64,000 bases of DNA from Ascidia mentula (lineage: Eukaryota > Chordata > Ascidiacea > Phlebobranchia > Ascidiidae). Both the position numbers and the translations under genes were made by a program. Positions within the stretch are counted from its first letter, which is position 1. Each line of letters begins with the position of its first letter. Below the pieces are notes generated by a model. The model had not been told where the DNA came from. It saw only the letters and a list, made by a program, of their open reading frames with translations, and made no database searches. Positions 49,376 to 57,991 of the stretch are shown here, piece after piece. The stretch covers positions 12,839,001 to 12,903,000 of the forward strand of contig OX387199.1 of assembly GCA_947561715.1 (NCBI GenBank), given 5' to 3'.

Positions 49376-49565
49376 AGTAGTGTCTATCACAAATCATGCT
49401 CTACGGGTAATTAGAGGATGAAAGAGGATGAGGATGAAAGTGGATAAGGCTGAAAGAGGATGAGGATGAAAGAAGATGAGGATGAAAGAGGATGAGGCCA
49501 AGTTGAGCCAAGTGCAAGATCAGAGTGTTGAGCCGAGTAATCTGCTATTGTACGACCCTGTGAGC
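49376..49565. repeat. Left terminal repeat with GAGGATGAAA minisatellite
   Basis: After about 45 bp of unique terminal sequence comes a run of degenerate GAGGATGAAAGAGGATGAGG units (49412-49500), then GTGTTGAGCCGAGTAATCTG, then 21 consecutive G (49566-49586). The right end has the mirror image, with a longer minisatellite and 12 C at 57784-57795. Confidence 0.93.
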
Positions 49566-49980
49566 GGGGGGGGGGGGGGGGGGGGGTATTGTTGATTGTT
49601 CTCTCAATCACGTCGAGGTCAACACTAGTTCACACTCCGATCAATTACAGTGTTACGCTTGCTTTAATTTCCCACTGCGAAATCTATTGTTGTGAAAACT
49701 GCGTTGTTGCCCACGCTGGTTTCCAGAACTGAAAAAGAGTTTATTTATCAAACAAAAGTGTATAGCTGTCGTGTCGAATATGGATGTGTTCGATTGACAT
49801 AGGGCCAAGACGGAATAACATTTTCCTGACCGACAAACATGGATAGCAACCGTTTAAACTTGAGTCAAAGCGGTGAAGAAGCTTTCAAACTGGGTTCTAG
49901 CCATTCCATATTAGAGATCGCATTAAAAAGCCCAGCACGATCACAGCAAAAGCATTTCACCTGTAACAATTACAATATAG

Positions 49981-51411
49981 GTCGAACGTTTTGCTCAATA
50001 AATGCAAGTGACTGAAGCCAGATTTTTCTATGGTTTCCAAATTGCAATTGAGAATATTCATTTCGAGATGTATTCTCTTTTGATCAATACTTATGCACGA
50101 GACAGTCAAGAGAGAGGGTTGTAGTTTACATATTTCACATTAACAATATGATAATTTTTCAATGAATGTTGCTCTGTTTTGTGAATTCCTAATAGACATT
50201 TTGTTATGTTGACATGTTCTGCAACACCACCATAGTTTTGTAAGCCTAACGTCAATCGTCAACCTTTTATCTCAAAATTACATTTTGTTTAACCATATTT
50301 TTACAGGGAGTACCTGTTCAACGCGATCGAAACTATGCCATGTGTTCGCAAGAAGGCTGAGCGGCCCTCAAATGGATAAATTAGCAACAGTTATACACAA
50401 CCTATACAGAGCGAGTGATTGCATTCGCTGCGGTGGAAGGCATTGTCTTCAGTGATTCATTTGCTGCAATATTCTGGTTGAAAAAAACGAAGCCTCATGC
50501 CTGGTCTTACCTTTTCCTGTGAACTCATCAGCCGTGATGAGGTTTGTATAAATTGTAAAGGCAACCATGTAAAGGGGGATATGTGGTGGTCGAAAATGTC
50601 CATACCCAGCGATGCGGCGTTGACCTTATTTTTGTGTTCATATTGTAATGTTTCTGAGAAATGTCGTTTTGCTAACTTTTCAATAATTTAAAACGTGCTT
50701 TTTTGTTTCTTACAGGGCTTGCATTGTGATTTTGCCTGCTTGATGTTCAAGCATTTGAATAACAAACCATCTCATGCCCAAATAATTGAAATAATCGGAG
50801 ATGCCGTTTGCATTGAACAGGCAAGTTTCACCTAATACACAGCTCCGCATCCATGCTTTCCAACCTACAATGTTAATCATACAAAAAAACGCTTACAGAA
50901 TCCAAAATCCGCACCAAAGTGTAATGTACATAATTGCTGCAAATAAATTTATTTGGGAGAAGCATGCATCACAATAGTTTGCTGTTATTTTTATATTACT
51001 TGTGCCAAACGCCACTCAAATACCGTAGTTTTGTGAAAGGCGAACTAACAACACACAACGCGTCTGTTTGGTTTACAGGAGTTTTTGTCCAAAAATTGTG
51101 TTGTTTTTACAATTGTGTCTTAAGAAAATGTATTTCTGTGAATTTGTGATGCAATATATGGAAAATACCGAATTGTATGTTTTAGTATAAAAGACTGGCC
51201 CATATTGTTATTAACACTGTCATGTTAAAGACGTTTCGACAAAAACTATGTTTTAGGTTTACAAATCCGAAAAACCCGTTCGATTTCATGGAGTTGATCT
51301 TACTCGAAGGAATAAAACAACTTCTTCGAAAAGCGCATCGGCGAATATCAGAAAGATGGTGTGATGGCAAAAGCGGAAGACATGAAATTTACGCTAGATG
51401 CAGACTTTTAA
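49981..51411 (+). pseudogene. rrm2: Ribonucleotide reductase R2 pseudogene, left arm
   Basis: R2 is the iron-radical subunit of class I ribonucleotide reductase, which makes dNTPs. Exons on the plus strand: 49981-50116 (FFYGFQIAIENIHFEMYS, first ExxH iron motif), 50307-50541 (YLFNAIETMPCVRKKAER, then FAAVEGIVFSDSF, ending ISRDE), 50716-50820 (second motif completed, LHCDFACLMFKHLNNKPS), and 51256-51411 with the last residues FTLDADF, the R1-binding tail. Introns are retained, so this is a genomic rather than reverse-transcribed copy. Lesions: TAA early in the first exon, frameshifts in the second (including at an A run near 50484), GG instead of GT at the donor after 50116, and disruption of the last exon. 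The N-terminal exons are missing, and the exon before the last is not in place. The third exon uses a GC donor in both arms. Confidence 0.94.
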
Positions 51412-51510
51412 CCGTTTCCATTGTCATTTATTATATTTCTATCTTCGACTTACTAAATAACTGGCATTGTTGTTGTTTTTCTTGTGGGAATCCAGTAATT
51501 TCGAATTGAA

Positions 51511-55990: not shown

Positions 55991-57506
55991 TCATGTTGGT
56001 CTTCATCACGCTATGCAGCTACCATGTACTTGCTTGCTGGGAGCTTATTTTTTCACCTATGTTTTTTTCGCTGGTGGTTGTCCTTTCGTTGTACTATTAC
56101 AAAGCGGCGCATAACTCTTCCCCTACTCTCTTTTTAACTGGTTCTTTTACGAAGCTGCATGATAGTCCAGCTCGAAACGTATTGTGCGGTGCTTCGGCTG
56201 GACCAAATAAACATAAACAAAACAGCGCGTGCTTTCACTATAACCCCACAAACCAATCAACAGTCTAAAAAGCTGCGTGAAAAGCTCCAAAGTGCCCACT
56301 CCCGCTCCGGAGACGGAAAAGAACAACTAGCAATTTTCCCACAGCGCCGCGTCAAGACTAGCACAGCGTGTGCTCTGACTTTCATCGTTAAACAATACGC
56401 AGTGTGCACTCTTCTTTGAACGTCCGTTTGTAATATCAAGTTTGATTCGCATGTCGCTGTGATGTTAATTAGAACGCATGCACCTAAAGCTAATTACAAC
56501 GCATGCACCTAACGCTAATTACAACGCATCCACCTACCCTCTTGTTCGCTTGCGAGCTTTCTTTTTCACCTACCCTGTTTTCGCTGGGGAGTTTTTCTTT
56601 CGTTGTTTTATTGCAAAGCTAATTACAACGCTTCCACCTACCCTGTTATACGCTTGGGAGTTTCTTTTTTTTTAACTACCCTCTTTTCGCTGGGAACTTT
56701 CTTTCCATTATTTAAAAATAAATAATATTATCGCACATTTTTTACCAGTCAAACACTTATTAATGCGAACAAACCTATATCAGCGATACGCCGCCTCCGT
56801 GTACCAATTACCCAGCTCCAAATGCATTTTGCGGTGCTTCGGATGGAAATAAACCAATCAGAAGCCTGCATGAAAAGGTGTATGAAATGCTCCCAGGCAA
56901 ATCGAAAGAGCCAAACATCCGTGTCCACGCCCGCTCCAGATTATAGAGAAGAGAACAATTAAAACTTTTCCCTTTCATACCATCGTACAGCACTCGAGAT
57001 TAGCAATCGGCCAAATGTATCAGCACGTCATGCTCGGTTTAACTTAGTTATAAATATCATCCTTATAAAGTGATTGTACTTTTTTGGTATGTGATCGTTT
57101 TGATCAGAGTCGGCTTCAACTTTCAACGTTGTAAACTGATCGTTCAGCTCGAAAACACAGTGTGAACTCTGTTGAACGTATTAAAATCCCAAAACAGCGA
57201 TCTGTAGACAGCTCAGATCGATTTATTGAGAGAAAAATATATTTCGCCTAAAACGGCATCATCAGTTTCTCCATTTACCAAAACTTATTCAAATAGAACC
57301 TCTGTTGAACGTCCAATCAATTCGTTTGGAATACCAAGTTTGAATCGCTCGAGTGATTTTTATGACCTGCGTCAGCCAAATTAACAACCACACACAGCGA
57401 CAGATCATAAACAAACAACCATCGACGTTCTGACTTAAAATCACTGTGATCAAGCAAAAGCAAGTTATTTTAAAAATAAAGGTGTGTTTTGACACGGAGT
57501 AATTTG
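55991..57506. other. Right-arm-only segment upstream of R2
   Basis: Absent from the left arm. It probably holds the 5' flank of the captured R2 gene. A short repeat GCATGCACCTAA/GCTAATTACAAC recurs three to four times at 56470-56640. No other gene seen. Confidence 0.5.
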
Positions 57507-57769
57507 ATATTGTAATTGTTACAGGTGAAATGCTTTTGCTGTGGTCGTGCTGGGCTTTTTAATGCGATCTCTAATATGGAATGGCTAGAACCCAGTTTGA
57601 AAGCTTCTTCACCGCTTTGACTCAAGTTTAAACGGTTGCTATCCATGTTTGTCGGTCAGGAAAATGTTATTCCGTCTTGGCCCTATGTCAATCGAACACA
57701 TCCATATTCGACACGACAGCTATACACTTTTGTTTGATAAATAAACTCTTTTTCAGTTCTGGAAACCAG

Positions 57770-57991
57770 CGTGGGCAACAACGCCCCCCCCCCCCGCTCA
57801 CAGGGTCGTACAATAGCAGATTACTCGGCTCAACACTCTGATCTTGCACTTGGCTCAACTTGGCCTCATCCTCTTTCATCCTCATCTTCTTTCATCCTCA
57901 TCCTCTTTCAGCCTCTTCCTCTTTCATCCTCATCCTCTTTCATCCTCATCCTCTAATTACCCGTTGAGCATGATTTGTGATAAACACTACT
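57770..57991. repeat. Right terminal repeat with minisatellite and poly-C
   Basis: Reverse complement of 49376-49565. The CCTCATCCTCTTTCAT-type minisatellite here has about twice as many units as on the left, and the homopolymer is 12 C (57784-57795) instead of 21 G. It ends CACTACT at 57991. Confidence 0.93.

What the first reader, a model, noticed from the sequence alone, without database searches (positions are those of the whole stretch)
49376..57991. Palindromic mobile element carrying ribonucleotide reductase R2 gene pieces, inserted in a retrotransposon
Seen directly: a 6-bp duplication GATCTG, inverted ends AGTAGTG..., two arms of more than 2.5 kb in inverted orientation, and R2 exons with retained introns in both arms (both ExxH iron motifs and the FTLDADF tail). 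Established: R2 is a housekeeping host gene, also carried by many large DNA viruses. Inference: a mobile element captured a genomic R2 gene and then became a giant inverted repeat, or the inverted duplication was itself mobilised. I know of no described element of this make-up.
Basis: partly seen in the sequence, partly recalled or inferred. Interest (0 to 1): 0.92.

Follow-up and report, generated by a model that had tools for sequence, protein, structure and literature searches.

The report
Palindromic Polinton satellites carrying host R2
In a sea-squirt genome, a virus-like transposon family (Polintons) appears to have picked up most of a host DNA-building gene, turned into giant mirror-image copies without genes of their own, and spread to several places with the ends of at least two different Polinton families.

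Summary
Window 49376-57991 is a complete insertion (6-bp duplication GATCTG, inverted AGTAGTG ends) made of two inverted arms, each with decayed exons and introns of the host ribonucleotide reductase R2 gene. It sits in a BEL/Pao retrotransposon. R2 pieces lie at 15 loci (this one included) besides the intact native gene; 9 show inverted arms, two being near-perfect palindromes of 12.6 and 14.0 kb. The host is an ascidian. The family is a non-autonomous derivative of Polinton/Maverick transposons: (AGT)2 ends, 6-bp duplications, and ends 79-95% identical to those of a Polinton with ATPase, integrase, protease and PolB pieces. Two R2 palindromes instead carry the unrelated ends of a second Polinton family (98-99%), with the same junction at both ends. 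The palindrome centre is shared by the 4 copies compared, yet in 7 of 7 two-armed elements tested the arms are each other's closest relatives, so arms are copied from one another; Polinton replication is the likeliest setting, chromosomal gene conversion the rival. R2 is a decayed passenger now. My searches of the held library showed no palindromic or R2-bearing Polinton.

The parts
49370..49375 (.). target-site duplication, left copy (GATCTG)
   Evidence: read directly
57992..57997 (.). target-site duplication, right copy (GATCTG)
   Evidence: read directly
49376..57991 (.). whole palindromic non-autonomous Polinton derivative, 8616 bp
   Evidence: ends, duplication and inverted arms
49376..49916 (+). 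type-A Polinton terminal region, left (homologous to the C72:17349978 Polinton end), with 16-bp minisatellite 49414-49497
   Evidence: (85-94% in pieces)
57569..57991 (-). type-A Polinton terminal region, right, with 16-bp minisatellite 57864-57954
   Evidence: (82-94% in pieces)
49376..53665 (+). left arm (1.95 kb of the arm missing at 49978; keeps the central segment)
53666..57991 (-). right arm (central segment missing)
49981..50114 (+). R2 exon F relic, left arm (ENIH motif)
50307..50541 (+). R2 exon G relic, left arm
50716..50820 (+). R2 exon H relic, left arm
51257..51411 (+). R2 exon J relic (FTLDADF end), left arm
52733..52848 (+). displaced copy of R2 exon I
   Evidence: also out of order in the C1 and C67 copies
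53272..53439 (+). stretch matching native sequence just past the R2 stop codon
   Evidence: 76%
54211..54354 (-). R2 exon J relic, right arm
54718..54822 (-). R2 exon H relic, right arm
54997..55226 (-). R2 exon G relic, right arm (shared TAG at codon 152, counted from exon D)
55417..55552 (-). R2 exon F relic, right arm
55626..55664 (-). last third of R2 exon E, right arm
   Evidence: 39 of 117 bases
55673..55799 (-). R2 exon D relic, right arm (shared TGA at codon 38)
55896..56014 (-). 5' part of the captured R2 region (native 2373084-2372956)
   Evidence: 83%
56015..57506 (-). non-R2 interior, right arm only: sub-repeats of 25, 36 and 104 bp; part resembles a satellite on C72
44338..49369 (+). 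BEL/Pao retrotransposon interrupted by the element (DUF1759, Peptidase_A17, integrase zinc domain)
57998..58565 (+). rest of the BEL/Pao integrase (DUF5641); 243-codon frame open across the joined flanks

Best explanation
It is a non-autonomous, palindromic derivative ('satellite') of Polinton/Maverick transposons in an ascidian genome. An ancestor with Polinton ends took up most of an intron-bearing R2 gene, with matches spread over 3.47 kb of the native locus, and became a palindrome, probably once, by a fold-back whose centre is still shared by old and young copies. I found no Polinton gene in it, so it should be moved in trans by intact Polintons: their integrase inserts it with a 6-bp duplication (shown by anatomy), presumably after their protein-primed PolB has copied it as an extrachromosomal linear DNA (inferred). 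During that copying one arm serves as template for the other (a strand reaching the centre folds back and copies itself, or mismatches in a hairpin are repaired), so each insertion starts with near-identical arms and a new end acquired on one side appears on both (arm homogenisation shown; its place in replication inferred). The R2 gene is now a dead passenger. After insertion the copies lose their palindrome by deletions and insertions, as in the window.
For: Polinton identity: (AGT)2 ends plus 6-bp duplications as reported for vertebrate Mavericks (PMC8097293, passages); the C72:17349978-17391860 Polinton (duplication CCCCTG) shares the ends (85% with the window's left end over its positions 1-406, 95% with C1 over 39-406, further blocks to 682) and codes for an Adeno_IVa2/AAA-like ATPase, rve+Chromo integrase and Peptidase_C5 protease and a PolB piece (see 10 of 10 in the full report). 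Mobility: perfect 6-bp duplications in 6 of 7 R2 loci with two ends read (WIN, C1, C71a, C71b, C67, C1b; the failure is the nested 50-kb C69 locus) and in an R2-less mini copy. Second helper family: ends of C71b and C1b 98-99% identical over 295-297 bp to the C2 Polinton, no blastn similarity to the type-A Polinton. Arm copying: arms sister in 7 of 7, arm-arm 0.1-3.9% against 1.6-12.4% between elements, a shared centre in 4 copies compared, same end type on both sides at 8 of 8 loci and the foreign junction identical left and right in 3 of 3. Passenger R2: each of 21 arm copies examined has at least one stop; variable sites are alike at codon positions 1/2/3 (26.5/21.7/26.3%).
Against: No excision, extrachromosomal form, transcript or packaging was seen. 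Gene conversion between arms in the chromosome would also keep arms alike, and the undamaged palindromes have low arm divergence (C71b 0.1%, C1 0.4%). The C69 50-kb locus has no matching duplication. Introns vary more among copies (38.5% of sites) than any codon position, which plain neutrality does not explain; it may be alignment noise. The PolB piece and the 629-codon capsid candidate have no Pfam match, so capsid genes are unproven here. The type-B Polintons' integrase was not tested. Sister support for the C72s arms is only 0.77; C70's left arm gives 722 compared sites. C71b and C1b share one junction, so the 3 are not independent.
Confidence: 0.78

Rival explanations
1. Same element family, but the arms are kept alike by gene conversion between the two arms while they sit in the chromosome, not by copying during transposition; the palindrome is then only an inherited structure.
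For: The two undamaged palindromes have little arm divergence (C71b 0.1%, C1 0.4%), most interrupted ones more (WIN 1.1, C72s 1.1, C70 2.4, C67 3.9%), though C71a, with about 3 kb of extra sequence in one arm, has 0.3%. Arm-to-arm conversion of chromosomal palindromes is known (recalled).
Against: Foreign ends were exchanged to the last base at both ends with identical junctions; the 27 differences between the C1 arms are spread along most of the arm. None of this excludes conversion.
Confidence: 0.25
2. R2 was working cargo: an R2-bearing Polinton used the enzyme to raise nucleotide pools, as many large DNA viruses do, and the palindromes are its decayed descendants; or the donor was a functional R2 of another species or a lost paralogue.
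For: Codons where at least 80% of the copies that cover them (11 copies in all, at least 4 per codon) share a difference from native: 31 synonymous, 11 nonsynonymous (one of these a stop, two agreeing with other ascidians), while random changes give 4 nonsynonymous to 1 synonymous; positions 1/2/3 2.7/2.3/13.0%, introns 14.1%. The deep copy C69s lacks the two shared stops. With a clock and mean radiation depth about 28 neutral nonsynonymous changes were expected on the trunk (P 0.0003).
Against: With the largest depth observed the trunk length falls to zero and the test says nothing. No ATPase or PolB match lies at an R2 locus. Each of 21 arm copies has a stop.
Confidence: 0.2
3. The palindromes are assembly artefacts (fold-back chimeras).
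For: Palindromic chimeras are a known long-read artefact (recalled); no reads were available.
Against: Six R2 elements end in perfect, mutually different 6-bp duplications; arms differ by substitutions and indels (C1: 27 substitutions, 40 gap bases); 4 copies share one centre.
Confidence: 0.03
4. The R2 is viral (from a large DNA virus), not host.
For: Many large DNA viruses code for R2 (established knowledge).
Against: Five of the six introns between exons D and J, and stretches up to 957 bp past the stop codon, align with the native ascidian gene in one copy or another.
Confidence: 0.01

Closest known systems
Polinton/Maverick self-synthesising transposons (polintoviruses)
   Same: (AGT)2 ends, 6-bp duplications, ends homologous over hundreds of bp to Polintons of the same genome.
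   Different: No Polinton gene found; whole element palindromic instead of inverted only at the ends; carries host R2 with introns.
Gene-capturing DNA transposons (Pack-MULEs, Helitrons)
   Same: Host gene sequence amplified by a non-autonomous element.
   Different: Most of a gene with introns and 3' sequence, Polinton ends, palindromic. [quoted passage not shown]
Fold-back or long-TIR elements (recalled)
   Same: Very long inverted arms.
   Different: Ends, duplication length and partners are Polinton.
Symmetrical defective genomes of adenoviruses and invertron plasmids (panhandle or racquet intermediates)
   Same: Protein-primed linear replicons with inverted ends; PMC1864894 (passages) links long inverted mtDNA repeats around integrated plasmids of this type to panhandle-shaped intermediates. 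The adenovirus case is recalled, not looked up.
   Different: Here inserted in chromosomes, multicopy, and bearing a host gene.
Teratorn
   Same: Transposon-virus hybrid; seen only in search listings.
   Different: piggyBac superfamily with herpesvirus genes.

Membership tests
Polinton/Maverick | terminal motif (AGT)2//(ACT)2 | tested here: met
   against PMC8097293 passages; exceptions: C1b left end reads AGTATAGT, C69 region left end CGTGGT
Polinton/Maverick | perfect 6-bp target-site duplication | tested here: met
   6 of 7 R2 loci with two ends read; fails at the nested C69 50-kb locus
Polinton/Maverick | terminal inverted repeats homologous to autonomous members | tested here: met
   type A with C72:17349978, type B with C2:18110756 and C69:21856469
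Polinton/Maverick | own PolB, integrase, protease, ATPase and capsid genes | tested here: not met
   no ATPase or PolB match at any of the 15 R2 loci; the C1 arm has no nucleotide match to the C72 Polinton beyond about 850 bp from its ends; integrase, protease and capsid were not searched there by protein. Therefore filed as a non-autonomous derivative, not a Polinton proper
Polinton/Maverick | protein-primed replication | not testable with these tools
   inferred from PolB of partner elements
Host-gene-capturing transposon | multicopy, host gene with introns, native locus elsewhere | tested here: met
DNA-virus R2 | R2 unrelated to the host locus, without its introns | tested here: not met
   introns and 3' sequence shared with native gene

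The most novel reading that the evidence does not exclude
The palindromes are the endogenous equivalent of defective interfering genomes: parasites of Polinton 'viruses' that replicate as self-complementary hairpins, regenerate both arms from one at every round, and switch helper by picking up another Polinton's end on one arm and copying it to the other. Three different type-B junctions suggest at least three such switches. Their ancestor may have carried a working R2.
Probability: 0.35. Interest if true: 0.85.

Novelty: new variant of a known kind. Interest (0 to 1): 0.7.

Why it matters
Polintons are thought to be protein-primed, virus-like elements, but (as far as I recall) their replication is inferred from gene content. 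A multicopy palindrome with a shared centre and concerted arms, moved with the ends of two Polinton families, is a natural record of that replication and of recombination between Polintons. It also shows a Polinton-class element taking up most of a host gene with introns, hence from DNA, and its natural copies show which end sequences suffice for insertion.

Tried and rejected
Rejected: viral origin of R2 (introns and 3' sequence match the native gene); lone insertion (15 loci); independent palindromes at each locus (shared centre in the 4 copies compared, C1, C71b, C72s and the left side of C67; the other palindromic loci were not compared there); the two ends of the C69 50-kb region as one insertion (flanks CCAATG and GAGGTG differ). 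The 150-codon ORF at 51499-51951, partly repeated in the right arm, has no Pfam match and most of it has no counterpart in C67: not taken as a gene.

Literature: 10 searches, in a library of open-licence papers only. Six exact phrases for non-autonomous, defective or derivative Polinton/Maverick gave 0 papers; 'polinton' with 'ribonucleotide reductase' gave 20 papers, of which I saw titles and abstract starts only; 'polinton' with 'palindrom' gave 44, 25 listed. Apart from six papers of which I saw passages, all were seen as listings. Repbase could not be searched; non-autonomous Polintons may be listed there.

Led nowhere: Pfam on the PolB piece and capsid candidate, solved structures for the PolB piece (best E 0.32), clock test of the R2 trunk (depends on the depth chosen).
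Full report
1. Observation. The window element runs from 49376 to 57991 between two copies of GATCTG. Inverted blocks run in order from tips to centre. Joining the flanks with one GATCTG gives a 243-codon frame across the junction (54 codons left, 189 right); with the element in place the longest frame over the left junction is 28 codons. The interrupted gene is the integrase end of a BEL/Pao retrotransposon (Peptidase_A17 E 1.8e-38, DUF5641 E 7.7e-23).

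2. Host and native gene. The genome held is 196 Mb in 79 contigs. An intact R2 gene lies at C69:2370575 to about 2373100, minus strand. Its spliced protein, with an N-terminal part that is my reading, is 84% identical to Ciona intestinalis, 83% to Styela clava and 82% to Clavelina lepadiformis R2, the best-scoring named hits (120 of 7998 listed). The host is therefore an ascidian; the species is not known to me.

3. Family. PF00268 gives 46 matches, 5 in the native gene and 41 at 15 other loci (a lower bound; the grouping into loci is mine; the matches at C69:13.99 and C73:6.60 Mb are below the cut-off, but element sequence lies beside them). I fetched 12 of the 15 largely and C70:3.01 Mb in part; C69:13.99 and C73:6.60 Mb were not fetched. 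Nine of the 15 show inverted arms: C1:9.53 (C1b), C1:27.75 (C1), C52:12.89 (window, WIN), C67:11.56 (C67), C69:15.05 (C69 region), C70:3.87 (C70), C71:11.89 (C71a), C71:19.08 (C71b), C72:9.90 Mb (C72s). Two are nearly perfect palindromes: C1:27746444-27760415, 13,972 bp, 98.9% self-complementary, and C71:19074848-19087429, 12,582 bp, 99.6%. The rest are single-armed or tandem (C52:20.59 = C52b, C69:12.63 = C69s, C72:9.887 = C72old) or fragments. The window copy is a deletion derivative of the palindrome.

4. Ends. Left and right 6-bp flanks agree in WIN (GATCTG), C1 (CACAAG), C71a (GTTACG), C71b (CATCTG), C67 (CTGCTG) and C1b (TGGGGC, its left end reading AGTATAGT), and in an R2-less 1.5-kb mini copy C52:13074215-13075714 (TGTGTG). 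They disagree at the C69 50-kb locus, which holds several pieces (CCAATG, GAGGTG). For C70 and C72s only one end was found.

5. Type-A Polinton. C72:17349978-17391860 has the same ends and a CCCCTG duplication. Its frames match Adeno_IVa2 (E 1.8e-5, over the cut-off) and AAA_14 (1.7e-5, under it), rve (3e-17) with Chromo (1.7e-8), and Peptidase_C5 (5.7e-6); four of the seven frames given, among them the capsid candidate and the PolB piece, have no match. Other sequence interrupts it (a Transposase_21-like frame, under the cut-off). The 239-codon PolB piece has 54 matches in the genome; PF03175 DNA_pol_B_2 has 10, and at 10 of those 10 a match to the piece lies within about 2 kb on the same strand, hence PolB. 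The ATPase has 92 matches (rows, not elements). The C1 arm matches this Polinton only at its ends, to about 680 bp in order and one inverted piece to about 850. No R2 match lies in it.

6. Type-B ends. The first 153 bp of C71b are 100% identical to both ends of C69:21856469-21871296 and 98-99% to both ends of C2:18110756-18122797. Both hold an ATPase frame without stops and a PolB piece 79% identical to the type-A one. The C2 element has GTTGGT on both sides and terminal repeats 99.5% identical over 403 bp. The first 313 bp of C71b have no blastn match in the type-A Polinton. Junctions with the R2 interior: B297/arm 704 in C71b and C1b (98.7 and 97.6% to C2), B269/arm 907 in C67 (86%) and on the left side of the mini copy, B112 followed by type-A sequence in C69s (82%). 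Type-A sequence is found in C69s, C52b, C70 and C72old (the last 68%), so A is probably ancestral and B was gained at least three times (inference). Of 8 loci with both ends read (WIN, C1, C71a, C69 region, C71b, C1b, C67, mini) 8 have the same type on both sides; the C69 region's ends may belong to different insertions and the mini copy has no R2. Where two foreign junctions can be compared (C71b, C1b, C67) 3 of 3 are the same left and right; C71b and C1b share one junction.

7. Arms. Projected onto the C1 arm, arm-arm differences are C71b 0.1, C71a 0.3, C1 0.4, WIN 1.1, C72s 1.1, C70 2.4 (722 sites), C67 3.9%; between elements 1.6 to 12.4%. In a FastTree of 21 arm sequences (columns 600-6986) the two arms are sisters in 7 of 7 two-armed elements (support 1.00 for five, 0.994 C70, 0.77 C72s); the three pieces of the C69 region also group (0.995). 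C1b was not in the tree, and projection on one reference may lose diverged parts. The centre, a C-run, A-run, T-run, G-run core with matching flanks, aligns between C1, C71b, C72s and the left side of C67. A shared centre plus sister arms means concerted evolution of the arms; this is the main mechanistic result. Whether copying happens during replication or in the chromosome is not settled.

8. R2. Matches to the native locus run from 2373084 to about 2369618, spread over 3.47 kb and reaching 957 bp past the stop; about 560 bp near the 5' end are missing in C1, C67 and C69s, and an added segment with a second exon I sits between stop codon and 3' sequence in C1 and C67. In C67 and C72old exons I and J are also in place. 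Exon E is present over 60% or more only in C67 and C69s. A stop at codon 152 (TAG, TAA in one) is in every copy covering it except C69s; C72old has a TAG two codons on, possibly the same. TGA at codon 38 is in the copies covering it except C67 and C69s. Among 11 copies, variable sites are 79/298, 65/299 and 79/300 at codon positions 1, 2, 3, but 183/475 in introns; pairwise 7.5, 5.6, 7.6 and 13.0%. Equal change at the three positions argues against selection on the protein since the copies spread; the higher intron value is unexplained and may be alignment noise. Fixed differences from native are 8/298, 7/299, 39/300 and 67/475: purifying selection on at least the native branch. Whether also on the captured lineage depends on the clock and is left open.

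9. Literature. Vertebrate Mavericks: (AGT)2//(ACT)2 ends and perfect 6-bp duplications (PMC8097293, two passages). Review of giant transposons (PMC6431247, passages). Panhandle intermediates and inverted repeats around invertron plasmids (PMC1864894, passages). Polinton capsid paper (PMC4028283, one passage), Daphnia Mavericks (PMC2884549, passages), vertebrate fossils (PMC9004415, passages). None of the passages seen describes palindromic or R2-bearing Polintons; the searches are named in Tried and rejected.

10. Verdict. Real, multicopy, and explained as a new variant of a known kind: a non-autonomous palindromic Polinton derivative with a captured host gene. Interest stays high because of the concerted arms and the exchange of ends between Polinton families.

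Noticed in passing
window 34675-35328 (-): Decayed Polinton PolB piece, 65% identical to that of the type-A Polinton, about 14 kb upstream of the element: a separate Polinton relic in the same window.
   Followed up: partly
window 40163-40843 (-): A second BEL/Pao fragment (Peptidase_A17) in opposite orientation to the interrupted one.
   Followed up: no
C72:13495248-13497751: Array of hits resembling a sub-repeat in the non-R2 interior of the element; a satellite may derive from the element or the reverse.
   Followed up: no
whole genome G000: 92 matches listed to the Polinton ATPase, many without stops: Polintons appear numerous and partly recent in this ascidian.
   Followed up: partly
L025 (C1:27743043-27745235): Minisatellite open in several frames (units like 'KPRYQTGFPLKH') about 1.2 kb left of the C1 palindrome.
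   Followed up: no
C52:13074215-13075714: 1.5-kb R2-less mini element with type-B ends and TGTGTG on both sides: a deletion derivative.
   Followed up: partly
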